Assembly (NCBI GenBank): GCA_903873915.1
Contig: CAIQQH010000115.1
Coordinates: forward strand, 1 to 37,889
Direction of reading: 5' to 3'
Source: an uncultured Flavobacteriia bacterium
Lineage (GTDB): Bacteria > Bacteroidota > Bacteroidia > Flavobacteriales_D > Crocinitomicaceae
Length of the DNA stretch: 37,889 nt
Part shown: positions 19,062 to 37,889 of the stretch, piece by piece
Numbering within the stretch: position 1 is the first letter of the stretch
Layout: each line of letters starts with the position of its first letter
Position numbers and translations under genes: made by a program
The notes under the pieces: model-generated
What the model was told of the DNA's origin: nothing
Database searches by the model: none
The model's input: only the letters and a program-made list of their open reading frames with translations

Positions 19062-20996
19062 ATGTTCAATTGCCCTGAAAACCATTTGCCTTATTGCCTT
19101 GATTTATTGACTCGGCAACGACTTCACACACTAGAAGTACACGTTGGGAACATAAGTTTGGGTGGTGCTGCGCCAATTCGCGTTCAATCCATGACAACAA
19201 CAGACACCATGGATACGGTAGCATCTGTAGAACAATCCATTCGTATGATTGACGCGGGCTGCGAGTTGGTGCGTTTAACTGCTCCGAGCAAGAACGAAGC
19301 TGAAAACTTAAGAAATATACAGTCGGAATTACACGCAAAAGGATATTCAACCCCCCTTGTCGCCGACATTCACTTTACACCAAATGCCGCTGAAATTGCC
19401 GCGGGAATTGTCGAAAAGGTGCGTGTGAATCCCGGTAATTATGCAGACAAAAAGAAATTTGAAGAAATTGAATATACCGAAGAAAGTTACCAAGCTGAAC
19501 TAAAGCGCATTGAAGAGAAATTTACCCCACTTGTTTTACTTTGTAAAATGAATGGGACAGCAATGCGGATAGGCACAAATCACGGTTCGCTTTCTGACAG
19601 GATCTTGAGCCGTTTTGGTGATACACCACAAGGAATGGTTGAATCAGCAATGGAGTTCATTCGCATCTGCGAAAAACACGATTACCATTCACTTGTCATT
19701 TCTATGAAGGCAAGTAACACCTTGGTCATGGTTCAGGCCTATAGACTTTTAGTAGCAACCATGTTAAAAAACGGACGATGCTATCCGCTTCATCTAGGCG
19801 TTACAGAGGCCGGGGATGGTGAAGATGGGCGCATAAAATCCGCTGTAGGAATTGGGGCATTATTGGAAGATGGACTCGGCGACACCGTCCGTGTTTCGTT
19901 GACTGAAGCGCCAGAGTACGAAATGCCAGTTGCACGAAAATTGATTGCAAAATATACCAAACGAAGCAATAATTATCCCCTGCCAGAAGGACAGATTCCG
20001 AGTTATTCCCCGTATCACCAAGAACGCAGAAAAACACGCCAACACCACAATATAGGTAGCGACCACGTTCCTGTTGTTGTTGCAGATTTATCAACGAAAA
20101 AGGAAATCACACCAGCGAATTTTTTCGCCTTCGGATATACCTATTCAGTTCAATTGGACAAGTGGACCATTTTGGATCAGGCAGCTGATTATGTGTACAT
20201 CGGTTCAAAGACCTTAGACTTTGAATTACCAGGACACCTCGGTGTAATCGTCGATTTTGACATCTGGAAGAAAGAGTACTCAAACAAAGCCGGATTTTCA
20301 CCCTTACTTTCACTAGATGATGCTCCTTCGTTTCCGGAAGACATCGCTGCCTTTTTAGCAGTAAAGGCAGAGGATGATTTACCAGTTGATTTGCTTCGTT
20401 CACGACCAAGGCTAACGCTCATTGGGTCAACTGAATACGACAACAAGACACATGTTTTTCGTTACTTTTATTTGAATTTAGCGAAATTTGAACTTTTGAA
20501 TCCTGTCGTCCTTCAGTTCACTGAAAACACCACAGACGAAGAAACCTTCCAATTAAACGCGTCATCAGATGCGGGATCGTTGTTGATTGATGGCTTTGGA
20601 GATGGGCTATGGTTAAAGAGTGATCAGCCAAGAAAAGTGATTAACTCGACTGCCTTTGGAATTTTACAAGCCACACGCTCACGCATTTCCAAGACCGAGT
20701 ACATCTCGTGTCCATCGTGTGGACGCACGCTCTTTGATCTTCAAGAAACAACAGCGAAGATTCGCCAGCGCACCTCTCACTTAAAGGGACTTAAAATCGG
20801 AATCATGGGTTGTATCGTGAATGGTCCGGGAGAAATGGCTGATGCCGACTACGGATACGTAGGTACAGGGCAGGGGAAGATTACCTTGTACAAAGAGAAG
20901 GAAGTTATTAAAAAGAATGTGCCTGAGGAAAAGGCGGTAGATGAACTCATCGAGCTGATTCGCTCCAATGGCGACTGGATCGACGCACAGTTTTAA
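19062..20996 (+). CDS. ispG: 4-hydroxy-3-methylbut-2-en-1-yl diphosphate synthase (IspG/GcpE), long form
   Basis: Penultimate enzyme of the MEP isoprenoid pathway, reducing MEcPP to HMBPP with a [4Fe-4S] cluster. 644 residues, the long three-part form known from Bacteroidota, Chlamydiae and plants rather than the 370-residue E. coli form. The N-terminal TIM barrel has VQSMTTTDTMDT, DIHFTPNAAE and KVRVNPGNYADK. A central inserted domain (about 290-540) follows. The C-terminal reductase part has C550 and C553 in CPSCGRT, C584 in GCIVNGPGE and the catalytic glutamate E591. The start at 19062 is the only ATG giving a normal N terminus. It ends at a bidirectional terminator shared with mnmG. Confidence 0.97.
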   Translation: MFNCPENHLPYCLDLLTRQRLHTLEVHVGNISLGGAAPIRVQSMTTTDTMDTVASVEQSIRMIDAGCELVRLTAPSKNEAENLRNIQSELHAKGYSTPLVADIHFTPNAAEIAAGIVEKVRVNPGNYADKKKFEEIEYTEESYQAELKRIEEKFTPLVLLCKMNGTAMRIGTNHGSLSDRILSRFGDTPQGMVESAMEFIRICEKHDYHSLVISMKASNTLVMVQAYRLLVATMLKNGRCYPLHLGVTEAGDGEDGRIKSAVGIGALLEDGLGDTVRVSLTEAPEYEMPVARKLIAKYTKRSNNYPLPEGQIPSYSPYHQERRKTRQHHNIGSDHVPVVVADLSTKKEITPANFFAFGYTYSVQLDKWTILDQAADYVYIGSKTLDFELPGHLGVIVDFDIWKKEYSNKAGFSPLLSLDDAPSFPEDIAAFLAVKAEDDLPVDLLRSRPRLTLIGSTEYDNKTHVFRYFYLNLAKFELLNPVVLQFTENTTDEETFQLNASSDAGSLLIDGFGDGLWLKSDQPRKVINSTAFGILQATRSRISKTEYISCPSCGRTLFDLQETTAKIRQRTSHLKGLKIGIMGCIVNGPGEMADADYGYVGTGQGKITLYKEKEVIKKNVPEEKAVDELIELIRSNGDWIDAQF

Positions 20997-21045: not shown

Positions 21046-21061
21046 TGTTTCACGTGAAACT
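21046..21061. other. parS-like site 1 (TGTTTCACGTGAAACT)
   Basis: 15 of 16 bases agree with the parS pattern TGTTNCACGTGNAACA, with a perfect 14-bp palindrome (GTTTCACGTGAAAC) at its core. It overlaps the mnmG stop codon. ParB binds such sites near replication origins. Confidence 0.7.
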
Positions 21062-22931
21062 ACCTTCCCAAATGAATGAGTAGAACAGATATATCACTAG
21101 GAGAAACCCCACTTATTCGGGTTGCTTGACCAATATTCACAGGTCTTATTTTAGTAAGTTTCTCTCTAGCCTCAGTGCTTATGCTTAACATCGTTGTAAA
21201 GTCTGTATTCAATGGTATAATCACATCCTCCAATCGGTTCATCTTGTGAGCCTGTTCTTCTTCGCGTGAAATATAACCCTCGTACTTCATTAAAATCTCA
21301 GCTTGTGAAACGATATCAGGGTGATCTTTTGTCAAGCTTTCAGCTAAGTTTTTTAAATCTGAATTCACATTCAGCAGATCAGAAATTTCTATGTGTGGAC
21401 GAGTAATAATGCTCGACATTTTAACCTTTTGAATCAATATTGCTGAACCTTTTTCTTCGAGAGTTTGGTTTAATTCCTCAGGAGAAACGCTTGTTTCCTT
21501 AAAGGCACGAATCAATTTTTCTGTGCCCTCGTTTTTAATTTCGACCCTTTTCAAATCACCTTCATTGGCCAAGCCTATGACAAAACCAATGGGAGTAAGT
21601 CGAACATCCGCATTGTCCTGACGTAGTAGAATTCTATACTCGGCACGACTAGTAAACATCCGATAAGGCTCCTTCGTTCCTTTTGTAATCAAGTCATCAA
21701 TTAGAACACCAACGTATGCTTCGTCTCGATTTAAAATGAACGGCTGATCACCATGTACCTTCCTGTGCGCATTAATTCCAGCCATTAAGCCCTGACATGC
21801 CGCCTCCTCGTATCCAGTCGTTCCATTGATTTGGCCGGCAAAAAAGAGATTGTCGACCAACTTCGTTTCCAAGGTGTGCTTCAACTGTGTAGGCATAAAA
21901 TAGTCATATTCGATCGCGTAACCAGGGCGGAACATTTTAACATGTTCAAAACCAGGAATGCTTTGCATTGCTTTATATTGAATATCTTCAGGCAGAGATG
22001 TGCTAAACCCATTCACATAGATTTCCACAGTACGCCAACCTTCAGGTTCGACAAAAATTTGATGTCGGTCACGGTCTGCAAAACGATTGATTTTATCCTC
22101 TATGCTCGGACAATATCGCGGACCACTAGATTTAATAGCCCCATTAAACATTGGAGAGCGGTCAAATCCTGTTCGAAGAATATCGTGGGTGAGTTCATTG
22201 GTATATGTAATGTGACATGGGCGCTGTTGGGAGAGGGGAGAGGTGTTTCCAAAACTAAATTTAGACGGGGCCTCATCGCCGTGTTGAATGTCCATTTTCG
22301 AATAGTCAAGAGAACGACCATCCACACGCGGGGGAGTTCCAGTCTTCATTCGACCCGCCTCAAACCCCAACTCAACCAATTCCTCTGTAATTCCAAATGA
22401 CGCTTTTTCCGCAGCGCGTCCGCCACCGAATTGTTTTTCTCCGAGATGAATCAAACCATTCAGAAAGGTTCCATTGGTTAAGACTACGCTTTTGCCATAT
22501 ACCGAAATACCGAGAGAAGTTTTAATTCCACGTGCGGAACCGTTTTCAACGATCAGACCTGTACACATGTCCTGCCAGAAATCAACATTTGGATTTTCTT
22601 CCAAAAGAAATCGCCATTCTTCAGCGAACTTCATTCGGTCATTTTGAGTTCTGGGAGACCACATAGCTGGGCCCTTTGAAAGATTTAGCATCCGAAATTG
22701 AATTGCACTTTTGTCGCTCACGATACCAGAACCACCGCCGAGCGCATCAATTTCACGTACAATTTGTCCTTTCGCCACACCTCCCATTGCTGGATTGCAG
22801 CTCATCTGCGCTATGGTATTCATGTTCATTGTCACCAACAAAACCTTTGAACCCATCTTTCCAGCAGCGTTTGCGGCCTCACATCCAGCATGGCCTGCAC
22901 CGACCACAATTACATCGTATTCTTGAAGCAT
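21060..22931 (-). CDS. mnmG: tRNA uridine-5-carboxymethylaminomethyl modification enzyme MnmG (GidA)
   Basis: FAD-dependent partner of MnmE in wobble-U34 modification, 623 residues, the normal length. The Rossmann motif GAGHAGCEAA follows VVV near residue 10. The family signatures VLTNGTFLNGLIHLGEK and MKTGTPPRVDGRSLDYSKM are present, as are GYAIEYDYFMPTQLKHTLETK, GQINGTTGYEEAA and FTSRAEYRILLRQDNADVRLT. The C-terminal helical domain ends DISVLLIHLGR. It is the last gene of a minus-strand run DUF4175 - HATPase - ybeY - mnmG, and parS-like sites lie at its stop, in its leader and in the end of ybeY. mnmG (gidA) is an origin-proximal gene in many bacteria. Confidence 0.98.
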   Translation of the reverse strand: MLQEYDVIVVGAGHAGCEAANAAGKMGSKVLLVTMNMNTIAQMSCNPAMGGVAKGQIVREIDALGGGSGIVSDKSAIQFRMLNLSKGPAMWSPRTQNDRMKFAEEWRFLLEENPNVDFWQDMCTGLIVENGSARGIKTSLGISVYGKSVVLTNGTFLNGLIHLGEKQFGGGRAAEKASFGITEELVELGFEAGRMKTGTPPRVDGRSLDYSKMDIQHGDEAPSKFSFGNTSPLSQQRPCHITYTNELTHDILRTGFDRSPMFNGAIKSSGPRYCPSIEDKINRFADRDRHQIFVEPEGWRTVEIYVNGFSTSLPEDIQYKAMQSIPGFEHVKMFRPGYAIEYDYFMPTQLKHTLETKLVDNLFFAGQINGTTGYEEAACQGLMAGINAHRKVHGDQPFILNRDEAYVGVLIDDLITKGTKEPYRMFTSRAEYRILLRQDNADVRLTPIGFVIGLANEGDLKRVEIKNEGTEKLIRAFKETSVSPEELNQTLEEKGSAILIQKVKMSSIITRPHIEISDLLNVNSDLKNLAESLTKDHPDIVSQAEILMKYEGYISREEEQAHKMNRLEDVIIPLNTDFTTMLSISTEAREKLTKIRPVNIGQATRISGVSPSDISVLLIHLGR

Positions 22932-22940
22932 CTTGCAAAT

Positions 22941-22956
22941 TGTTTCACGTGGAACA
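22941..22956. other. parS-like site 2 (TGTTTCACGTGGAACA)
   Basis: Fits TGTTNCACGTGNAACA at every defined base; the two N positions differ, so the palindrome has one asymmetric pair. It lies 10-25 bp upstream of the mnmG ATG, where bound ParB could influence expression. Confidence 0.75.
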
Positions 22957-22977
22957 AAATTACAACCACATCAGCCT

Positions 22978-23403
22978 TTATGTTTCACGTGAAACATACT
23001 TATCTATATAATAATTCTCTTTTGAGCGCATTATTCGTGATTCCTCCTCGGATTTATCGCCGTAGCCACACAAATGCAAGACACCATGTACACAAACACG
23101 TTTTAATTCCAATTCACGTGTTACTGTATTTTCAAAAGCATTTTCATACACACGGTCTATCGAAACAAATAGATCGCCCGATATTTCAGTGTGCTCTGAA
23201 TAGTCAAATGTGATGATATCCGTATAATAATCGTGTTTTAAATACTGTTGATTCATTTCTAATAAATGCGCGTCTGAACAAAAAATCAAGGTAATTTCGC
23301 CAATTGAGCAACCCTCTTCAACAGCAACTTCATTCAACCAAAAAGAAAAAAGTTCCAAAGAAAACTCTGGAACTTCTACGTTTATGCATTCAAACGATAT
23401 CAT
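22978..23403 (-). CDS. ybeY: Endoribonuclease YbeY (rRNA maturation factor)
   Basis: Zinc-dependent RNase needed for 16S rRNA 3'-end maturation and 70S quality control, 141 residues. Family features: DIITFDYSE (62-70) and the metal motif HGVLHLCGYGDKSEEE with H106 and H110. The third ligand, a histidine in E. coli (HGxLHLxGYDH), is replaced by D116, as I recall also in other Bacteroidota relatives. The N terminus is short. It overlaps the upstream HATPase gene by four bases (ATGA), so translation is probably coupled. Its last codons (VSRET) are formed by a perfect parS-like sequence, so the protein end and a DNA site share the same bases. Confidence 0.93.
   Translation of the reverse strand: MISFECINVEVPEFSLELFSFWLNEVAVEEGCSIGEITLIFCSDAHLLEMNQQYLKHDYYTDIITFDYSEHTEISGDLFVSIDRVYENAFENTVTRELELKRVCVHGVLHLCGYGDKSEEESRIMRSKENYYIDKYVSRET
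22981..22996. other. parS-like site 3, perfect palindrome (TGTTTCACGTGAAACA)
   Basis: All 16 bases fit TGTTNCACGTGNAACA and the site is a perfect palindrome. It lies inside the 3' end of ybeY, 24 bp from site 2. Confidence 0.8.
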
Positions 23404-37000: not shown

Positions 37001-37432
37001 TTAAAGCGCTATTTTCTCCACCCGTTTTTGATGTCTTCCACCTTCGAATTCAGTGGTTAAAAATACTTCTACCATTTCCTTTGCTTCATCCATAGAAATA
37101 AAACGCGCCGGTAAAGCCAAAACGTTTGCGTTGTTGTGCAAACGCGCCAATTCTGCGATTTCCTTTTTCCAACACAAAGCGCTACGAATACCAGAATGTT
37201 TATTCGCCGTCATATTGATTCCGTTTCCAGACCCACAAATAAGTATTCCACGCATCCCCGGATTCGCTTCTATTAGTTCTGCAACTGGATGAGCATAGTC
37301 GGGGTAATCGATGCTCTCTTCCGAAAAACAACCAAAATCCTTAATTTCATACCCTAAGTCCCGCAAATATTGACTTACTTGTTCTTTGAGTTGAAATCCT
37401 GCATGATCTGCGCCGATTGGAATAATCTTCAT
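37001..37432 (-). CDS. rpiB: Ribose-5-phosphate isomerase B
   Basis: Interconverts ribose 5-phosphate and ribulose 5-phosphate in the pentose phosphate pathway. 143 residues from the ATG at 37432 (MKIIPIGADHAGFQLKE); the ATG at 37483 would add 17 residues but sits on its own -33 element. Family residues: D9-H10, the proton-abstracting cysteine C66 in CGSGNGI, HNNANVLALPAR and the SMDEA segment. LacAB/RpiB-like but not the allose enzyme as far as can be told. It is the last gene before the right-hand non-coding region. Confidence 0.95.
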   Translation of the reverse strand: MKIIPIGADHAGFQLKEQVSQYLRDLGYEIKDFGCFSEESIDYPDYAHPVAELIEANPGMRGILICGSGNGINMTANKHSGIRSALCWKKEIAELARLHNNANVLALPARFISMDEAKEMVEVFLTTEFEGGRHQKRVEKIAL

Positions 37433-37452
37433 AATGATGTGTTTTGGTCTTT

Positions 37453-37483
37453 CAAAGGTAAGGCTTATGCACAATGCGTCCAA
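37453..37483 (-). promoter_or_regulatory. rpiB promoter with DnaA-box-like site in its spacer
   Basis: Minus strand: TTG (37481-37483), 20-bp spacer, perfect -7 TACCTTTG (37453-37460), 20 bp before the ATG. The spacer contains TTATGCACA (37465-37473), a DnaA-box match. Confidence 0.6.
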
Positions 37484-37889
37484 GTTTTAAACATTCAAGG
37501 CTTTTTATAGAATGAAAAACACAGTAAACATTGAGTTTTAAAGACGAGGTTTCACACATCAAAAACGATAAAATTGTGAATTAGGGTTAACAACTATTCA
37601 AACATTTGTCTTGCACAGCTCAACAATTTTAAGAAAGCAAAATGCAAACGACATACGCAAGGAAAGTTTTGGTGACTTTTGGTTTATTTATGAAAAGGGT
37701 TTGACACATATATTCATCACTTCTTCCAAAGAAATTATCCACATCGCTAATAAATTCTAAATTGTTAATTAAGTGATAACATACTTGAAATCAAATAGTT
37801 TATATATTTTAAAACGTGTTGATAAAGGTTGTACATTTGTTGATGACCAATTTTCCAAGTAAAACGAAGTCATTTTTCACACATATCAA
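37484..37889. other. AT-rich non-coding region, possible oriC-like sequence
   Basis: No gene in more than 400 bp. DnaA-box-like 9-mers: TTATCCACA (37735-37743, perfect), TTATCAACA on the minus strand (37817-37825), TTTTTCACA (37873-37881), TAATTCACA on the minus strand (37575-37583), plus TTATGCACA in the rpiB promoter. Between them 37744-37815 is very AT-rich, which would suit an unwinding element. The right end runs off the window, so no flanking gene helps. This is a candidate only. Confidence 0.45.

What the first reader, a model, noticed from the sequence alone, without database searches (positions are those of the whole stretch)
21046..22996. Three parS-like sites flanking mnmG
TGTTTCACGTGAAACT at the mnmG stop, TGTTTCACGTGGAACA in its leader and TGTTTCACGTGAAACA in the end of ybeY form a cluster within 2 kb. 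Random occurrence of even one 16-mer of this kind in 38 kb is very unlikely. It marks a probable ParB loading zone, and hence origin proximity. One site lies within a coding end and another in a leader, so ParB may affect these genes.
Basis: partly seen in the sequence, partly recalled or inferred. Interest (0 to 1): 0.7.

Follow-up and report, generated by a model that had tools for sequence, protein, structure and literature searches.

The report
Chromosome centromere sites flanking mnmG
Three copies of the bacterial centromere sequence parS flank one gene in this flavobacterial genome, and the same arrangement recurs in many genomes of the phylum beside what base composition suggests is the replication origin, so it is an ordinary part in a well-kept place that may help to find origins which the usual marker gene misses.

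Summary
In detail: three parS-like 16-mers at the stated places, 0.02 expected in shuffles, and no other place with at most one mismatch in the 2.8 Mb draft genome. The genome also encodes ParA and a ParB with the parS-type residues R173 and G201. They are best read as the parS cluster of the chromosomal ParABS system. Of 174 exact sites listed in 107 Bacteroidota genomes, 169 lie within 1 kb of mnmG (listings were cut). In seven single-contig relatives mnmG is within about 5% of the genome of the best GC-skew switch; dnaA is 17-41% away in five. In 13 of 81 mnmG loci a DnaA-box cluster lies 4-6 kb from the mnmG start. The site in the ybeY end is read in three frames across close loci, so selection acts on DNA. 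Several Saprospirales, Hymenobacter and Adhaeribacter genomes carry parS elsewhere, so it is not simply an mnmG operator. The kind is known; its fixation at mnmG is the useful addition. ParB binding and effects on mnmG or ybeY are untested.

The parts
21046..21061 (.). parS site 1 (one mismatch), overlapping the TAG stop codon of mnmG
   Evidence: the same overlap with TAG in L080, L083, L093 and L095
22941..22956 (.). parS site 2 (exact), 9 bases before the mnmG start codon
   Evidence: offset of 6-10 bases in 17 of the 18 closest named loci (L079-L095, L143), 29 in L090
22981..22996 (.). parS site 3 (exact), encoding the C-terminal VSRET of YbeY
21060..22931 (-). mnmG (gidA), tRNA-modifying enzyme, 623 aa
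   Evidence: Pfam GIDA 1.9e-159; TIGR00136 9.7e-248
22978..23403 (-). ybeY, endoribonuclease, 141 aa
   Evidence: Pfam YbeY 2e-26
37433..37889 (.). Candidate oriC, tentative: AT-rich non-coding stretch upstream of rpiB, cut by the contig end, with DnaA-like boxes at 37465, 37735 and 37817
   Evidence: against: 0, 0 and 1 boxes in the same gap of three same-genus genomes and 0 in L086
37001..37483 (-). rpiB, neighbour of the candidate oriC; homology starts at 37432, the likely start codon
   Evidence: Pfam LacAB_rpiB 1.8e-58

Best explanation
The three palindromes are the parS centromere of this Fluviicola-like (Crocinitomicaceae) chromosome. The chromosomal ParB, encoded with ParA on another contig, would load as a CTP-dependent clamp at these sites, spread over the mnmG-ybeY region and be moved by ParA, so that the newly copied origin region is segregated first. 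The cluster is near oriC, which in many genomes of this phylum is not beside dnaA. Shown here: the sequences, their near-uniqueness in the genome, their conservation beside mnmG, the coincidence of mnmG with the GC-skew switch in single-contig relatives, and a ParA/ParB pair with R173 and G201. Inferred: ParB binding, clamp loading, segregation, and origin proximity in this very genome.
For: Three sites against 0.02 expected, none elsewhere in the genome with at most one mismatch. parB (E 1.9e-52) follows parA. ParB has R173, N178, G201 and R204 and the motif GERRFR (numbering set by an ungapped register on the KSR motif, not by an alignment with the Caulobacter protein); passages of PMC7383237 give R173/G201 for parS binders and Q173/R201 for Noc. 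Exact sites occur in 76 of 99 genomes, the own included (reversed control in 3 of 99), and in 87 of 118 genomes drawn from the phylum (control 1 of 118). Of listed exact sites, 73 of 75, 28 of 28 and 68 of 71 lie within 1 kb of mnmG; chance is about 0.13% per site in a 3 Mb genome (arithmetic). In 80 named mnmG loci, 57 hold a site with at most one mismatch, control 0 of 80. In seven single-contig genomes mnmG is within about 5% of the genome of the best skew switch. Strict DnaA boxes TTATCCACA: 30 in the bin 4-5 kb from the mnmG start over 71 sequences that cover it, reversed control 1. Three reading frames in the ybeY end.
Against: No binding or segregation data exist here. The own genome is a draft, so its skew was not tested. 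Site 1 deviates at its outermost base. 23 of 99 and 31 of 118 genomes have no exact site; of the 23, 15 were searched again and 14 have a site with at most one mismatch, not always at mnmG. Of 47 listed one-mismatch sites 14 lie away from mnmG. The share of coding on each strand does not place the origin at mnmG consistently: G077 and G157 disagree and G061 favours dnaA. Own ParB has A at position 170 where the paper gives G, and K at 184, which is usual in Noc though variable in ParB.
Confidence: 0.93

Rival explanations
1. The palindromes are operators of a transcription factor that controls mnmG and ybeY.
For: One site lies 9 bases before the mnmG start codon, an offset of 6-10 bases in 17 of the 18 closest named loci.
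Against: Of 169 listed exact sites near mnmG, 47 lie past its stop codon. In five Saprospirales-type genomes and G222 sites lie away from mnmG, and in two Hymenobacter, Adhaeribacter and G172 about 25-31 kb from it. The sequence is the parS consensus and the genome has a ParB with R173 and G201.
Confidence: 0.03
2. The sites are parS and ParB loading there also regulates mnmG or ybeY, coupling tRNA modification to the segregation state.
For: Site 2 is in the mnmG leader and the three sites bracket the gene. A review passage lists regulation of gene expression among ParB functions (PMC7333895).
Against: Position relative to mnmG varies (121 before the start, 47 after the stop, 1 inside), and some lineages have the sites off mnmG. 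No expression data.
Confidence: 0.15
3. Noc-type nucleoid occlusion sites rather than parS.
For: Noc and ParB are related families with similar sites (PMC7383237 passages); own ParB has the lysine at 184 usual in Noc, and Noc chains are among the matches in solved structures.
Against: Own ParB has R173 and G201, not Q173 and R201; one parB_part match in the draft genome; the sites are clustered at one place.
Confidence: 0.01

Closest known systems
Chromosomal ParABS system, parS sites (consensus TGTTTCACGTGAAACA)
   Same: Sequence, clustering, ParA and ParB in the genome, place near the replication origin (in relatives).
   Different: parAB is not beside the sites; the sites bracket mnmG and overlap coding sequence; one overlaps a stop codon.
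parS clusters used to set the origin in twelve gut bacteria, two of them Bacteroidetes (PMC10197239, passages read)
   Same: parS clusters and GC skew mark the origin, which does not always go with dnaA.
   Different: The passages read do not name the gene at the cluster; here it is mnmG in many genomes of the phylum.
oriC beside mnmG in Mariniflexile and Algorimicrobium (PMC11278836, PMC12843772, passages read)
   Same: Text of both puts oriC at mnmG by Ori-Finder 2022 and GC skew; in Mariniflexile dnaA did not fit the skew.
   Different: parS is not discussed: the only hit for 'pars' in each was 'parsimony'. The figure legend of the Mariniflexile paper says the reverse of its text (oriC at leuB and dnaA, ter at mnmG).

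Membership tests
parS site of a chromosomal ParABS system | Match to the 16-bp parS consensus | tested here: met
   Two exact, one with one mismatch
parS site of a chromosomal ParABS system | Clustered rather than scattered over the genome | tested here: met
   All three sites with at most one mismatch lie within 2 kb; genome 87.5% complete
parS site of a chromosomal ParABS system | parA and parB in the same genome | tested here: met
parS site of a chromosomal ParABS system | ParB with parS-type specificity residues | tested here: met
   R173 and G201, also N178 and R204; A170 and K184 differ from Caulobacter (G170, A184)
parS site of a chromosomal ParABS system | Near the replication origin | tested here: inconclusive
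   Met in relatives: GC skew in seven single-contig genomes, DnaA-box clusters in 13 of 81 loci. Not testable in the own draft genome
parS site of a chromosomal ParABS system | Bound by ParB and needed for segregation | not testable with these tools
   Needs ChIP-seq or binding assays
Noc binding site (NBS) | Cognate protein with Q173 and R201 | tested here: not met
   R173 and G201
oriC (candidate at 37433-37889) | Cluster of DnaA boxes in an AT-rich non-coding stretch, conserved in relatives | tested here: inconclusive
   AT-rich gap upstream of rpiB is conserved; boxes with at most one mismatch: 3 in the window, 0 to 3 in five close loci, 0, 0 and 1 in three same-genus genomes

The most novel reading that the evidence does not exclude
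Over much of Bacteroidota the centromere, not dnaA or parAB, is what stays with the origin: parS sites bracketing mnmG are a relic of an ancestral dnaA-mnmG origin region, kept through selection on DNA even inside coding ends, so that parS can locate the origin in genomes and metagenomes where dnaA misleads; and ParB loaded in the mnmG leader may tie tRNA modification to segregation.
Probability: 0.15. Interest if true: 0.65.

Novelty: new member of a known kind. Interest (0 to 1): 0.42.

Why it matters
dnaA is often used to set the start of bacterial chromosomes, but in five of seven single-contig relatives tested it is 17-41% of the genome away from the GC-skew switch. A parS cluster at mnmG gives a simple marker of the origin region that works on contigs, useful for rotating genomes and for growth-rate estimates from read coverage, and says where to look for oriC in this phylum. 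It also names a locus for testing how Bacteroidota segregate chromosomes; a passage of PMC10197239 reports no known condensin in the two Bacteroidetes studied.

Tried and rejected
DnaA boxes between 20 and 23.5 kb of the window: none with at most one mismatch, so oriC is not at the sites themselves. Local GC skew of the window is dominated by the stretch of the DUF4175 gene and does not place an origin. The candidate oriC upstream of rpiB is conserved as an AT-rich gap, but DnaA boxes are missing in L086, L326 and L327, so it is only a candidate. Rfam at gathering scores found one tRNA in the window and nothing in the five other sources given. An mnmG-operator reading was rejected on the exceptions. 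The share of coding on each strand was tried as an origin marker and is inconsistent. Literature: ten searches, of which three showed only part of their hits (8 of 51, 10 of 43, 15 of 201), listed no title on parS at mnmG across Bacteroidota. Only open-licence papers are held, and Livny 2007, the main parS survey, was not held, so this is no claim of absence from print. No paper was read whole; passages only.

Counting notes: listings were cut. Of 76 genomes with an exact site, 47 were listed; the other 29 were searched again, which listed exact sites for 19 (of the ten left, G067 appeared, and G061 and G077). Of 87, 43 were listed. In one search the rows of G000 and G046 were dropped because they had been counted. 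One-mismatch sites listed: 33 of 47 within 1 kb of mnmG. Ten genomes of the class without an exact site were searched again at one mismatch: six have such sites beside mnmG (G131, G135, G149, G176, G203, G215), three only elsewhere (G105, G139, G191), one none (G188); positions compared by eye. The sampled genomes and the 80 named loci overlap in part. The skew samples were 20 stretches (three genomes) or 10 stretches (four genomes) of 20 kb, so positions are good to about 5-10% of a genome; the four were sampled on a grid centred on mnmG, which gives roughly a one in ten chance each that mnmG comes out best. In G029 and G061, 8-15% of positions score better than mnmG.

Full report
WHAT IS THERE. 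The three sites are at the stated places. Two fit TGTTNCACGTGNAACA exactly and one has a changed last base. Shuffles give 0.02 sites with at most one mismatch. In the own genome, a draft of 137 contigs and 87.5% completeness, no other place has at most one mismatch; 24 places have two mismatches, against 18 with at most two for the reversed pattern. The window is the whole contig C115. Pfam names the neighbours: IspG (GcpE), MnmG, YbeY, a histidine-kinase-like ATPase, a DUF4175 protein and a tRNA synthetase of the E/Q class. The closest named loci bear the titles Fluviicola, Crocinitomicaceae, Cryomorphaceae and Flavobacteriales, with a few MAG titles from other groups.

THE PARTNER PROTEINS. 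One parB_part match lies on contig C6, next to parA; the next but one frame looks like dapB (name recalled). The closest solved structures are ParB proteins, with Noc chains also matched. At the four positions that passages of PMC7383237 give as deciding between parS and Noc sites, this ParB has R173, H179, K184 and G201: the two residues that contact the differing bases are of the parS type, and the lysine at 184 is usual in Noc but variable in ParB. The numbering rests on an ungapped register, not on an alignment with the Caulobacter protein. dnaA is matched in two pieces on two other contigs.

CONSERVATION AT mnmG. In 99 genomes (own included) 76 have an exact site; the reversed pattern occurs in 3. 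In 118 genomes drawn from the phylum 87 have one; the control occurs in 1. Where both the site and mnmG were listed, 169 of 174 exact sites, in 104 of 107 genomes, are within 1 kb of mnmG (73 of 75, 28 of 28, 68 of 71): 121 before the start, 47 after the stop, 1 inside. Of 47 listed one-mismatch sites, 33 are. In 80 named mnmG loci 57 hold a site with at most one mismatch and 50 an exact one, with 0 of 80 for the control. Of the 23 without, 19 bear titles of Saprospirales, Hymenobacter or Adhaeribacter (some genera placed from recall).

SELECTION ON DNA. In 19 sequences, the window and its 18 closest named loci, the site next to ybeY is read as VSRET or VPRET (12), as FHVEH or FHVKH (2), and in a frame in which the site itself supplies the TGA stop (2). 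In L088 only the stop codon overlaps it, in L093 it lies outside, and in L083 no frame was found. The protein ending differs while the DNA stays. At the 3' end of mnmG the site overlaps the TAG stop in the window and in L080, L083, L093 and L095, which would explain the changed outer base there.

ORIGIN. In three single-contig relatives sampled with 20 stretches and four with 10, mnmG is within about 5% of the genome of the best GC-skew switch, by raw skew and by third-position skew corrected for gene direction. The nearest dnaA distance by raw skew is 17-41% in five, 6% in G061 (16% by third positions) and zero in G106, where dnaA is about 55 kb from mnmG. parB, located in three, is 28-47% away. 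Against: the share of coding on each strand disagrees in G077 and G157 and favours dnaA in G061. In G152 dnaA is about 7 kb from an mnmG flanked by two exact parS sites, which suggests that dnaA and mnmG once shared the origin region and that dnaA left in many lineages (inference); in G165 and G212 they are about 370 and 250 kb apart. parS sites with at most one mismatch were also seen beside mnmG in G029, G061, G077 and G106, and none in the stretches away from mnmG in all seven. DnaA boxes (TTWTNCACA, three within 600 bp) cluster 4.3-5.9 kb from the mnmG start in 13 of 81 sequences, mainly Cytophagales by title, and elsewhere in 4 (the window, L091, L113, L153); with strict boxes 5 clusters, one of them (L113) 6 kb upstream. 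In L096, L103, L105 and L155, 4 to 7 boxes lie in and beside a gap before a TPR-type gene (Pfam run on L103 only). The text of two species descriptions places oriC at mnmG with Ori-Finder 2022 and GC skew (PMC11278836, PMC12843772; passages), though a figure legend in the first says the reverse; that program scores lineage-specific indicator genes (PMC10225481, passages), so they are not fully independent.

EXCEPTIONS. Ten named genomes without a site at mnmG were searched whole. Of seven from Saprospirales-type titles or a Bacteroidetes MAG, six have two sites within 3 kb of each other away from mnmG and one (G221) none. In G224 the pair directly follows a ybeY-like gene, and the next gene matches Peptidase M1; in G219, G220, G223 and G225 sites lie beside or in the end of a threonine-synthase-like gene (the ybeY and threonine synthase names there are from recall, and only the G224 neighbour was run on Pfam). 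In the two Hymenobacter genomes one site lies about 31 kb from mnmG, and in Adhaeribacter three sites spread over 220 kb with the exact one about 25 kb from mnmG, taking contigs of equal length as the same records in the same direction. In G172 the one exact site is 25.5 kb away. G127's site lies at a contig end beside a ybeY-like frame. Thus parS is tied to the region, not to mnmG.

IN THE WINDOW'S FAMILY the exact oriC is open. The gap upstream of rpiB is AT-rich and long (627-663 bp, 76-82% AT in three same-genus genomes) and in the window holds three DnaA-like boxes before the contig ends, but the boxes are not conserved. It lies 14 kb from the sites in the window; rpiB is about 5 kb from mnmG in L084, L086, L090 and L094 and 8-12 kb in the three same-genus genomes.

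VERDICT. These are parS sites of a standard ParABS system, very probably beside the origin. The kind is known. The degree of fixation at mnmG in the phylum, the loss of linkage to dnaA and parAB, and the frame-independent overlap with ybeY were not seen together in the listings and passages that I saw, within the limits of the library.

Noticed in passing
37433-37889: AT-rich non-coding stretch with three DnaA-like boxes upstream of rpiB, cut by the contig end; possible oriC.
   Followed up: partly
L096, L103, L105, L155 (4.4-5.1 kb after the mnmG start), L137 and L126 (4.8-6.0 kb): Clusters of DnaA boxes downstream of mnmG, mainly in Cytophagales: likely oriC.
   Followed up: partly
L113, 6.0-6.6 kb upstream of mnmG: A DnaA-box cluster on the other side of mnmG in Echinicola salinicaeni, against the common place in its relatives.
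   Followed up: no
L273, L274, L275, L276, L277, L278: parS pairs away from mnmG, beside ybeY-like or threonine-synthase-like genes in several; it is not known whether oriC or mnmG moved.
   Followed up: partly
L156:200-660: Four exact parS sites between about 100 and 540 bases upstream of mnmG in a Bacteroidetes MAG.
   Followed up: no
L284 near 6283: An exact site (TGTTGCACGTGGAACA) inside an MreB-like gene (name from recall), away from the mnmG cluster of the same genome G043.
   Followed up: no
L082, just past the mnmG stop: A 16-mer resembling parS but with two mismatches after a TAA stop, perhaps a decaying site.
   Followed up: no
19062-20996: Long IspG (644 aa) that Pfam GcpE matches in two separate stretches.
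   Followed up: no
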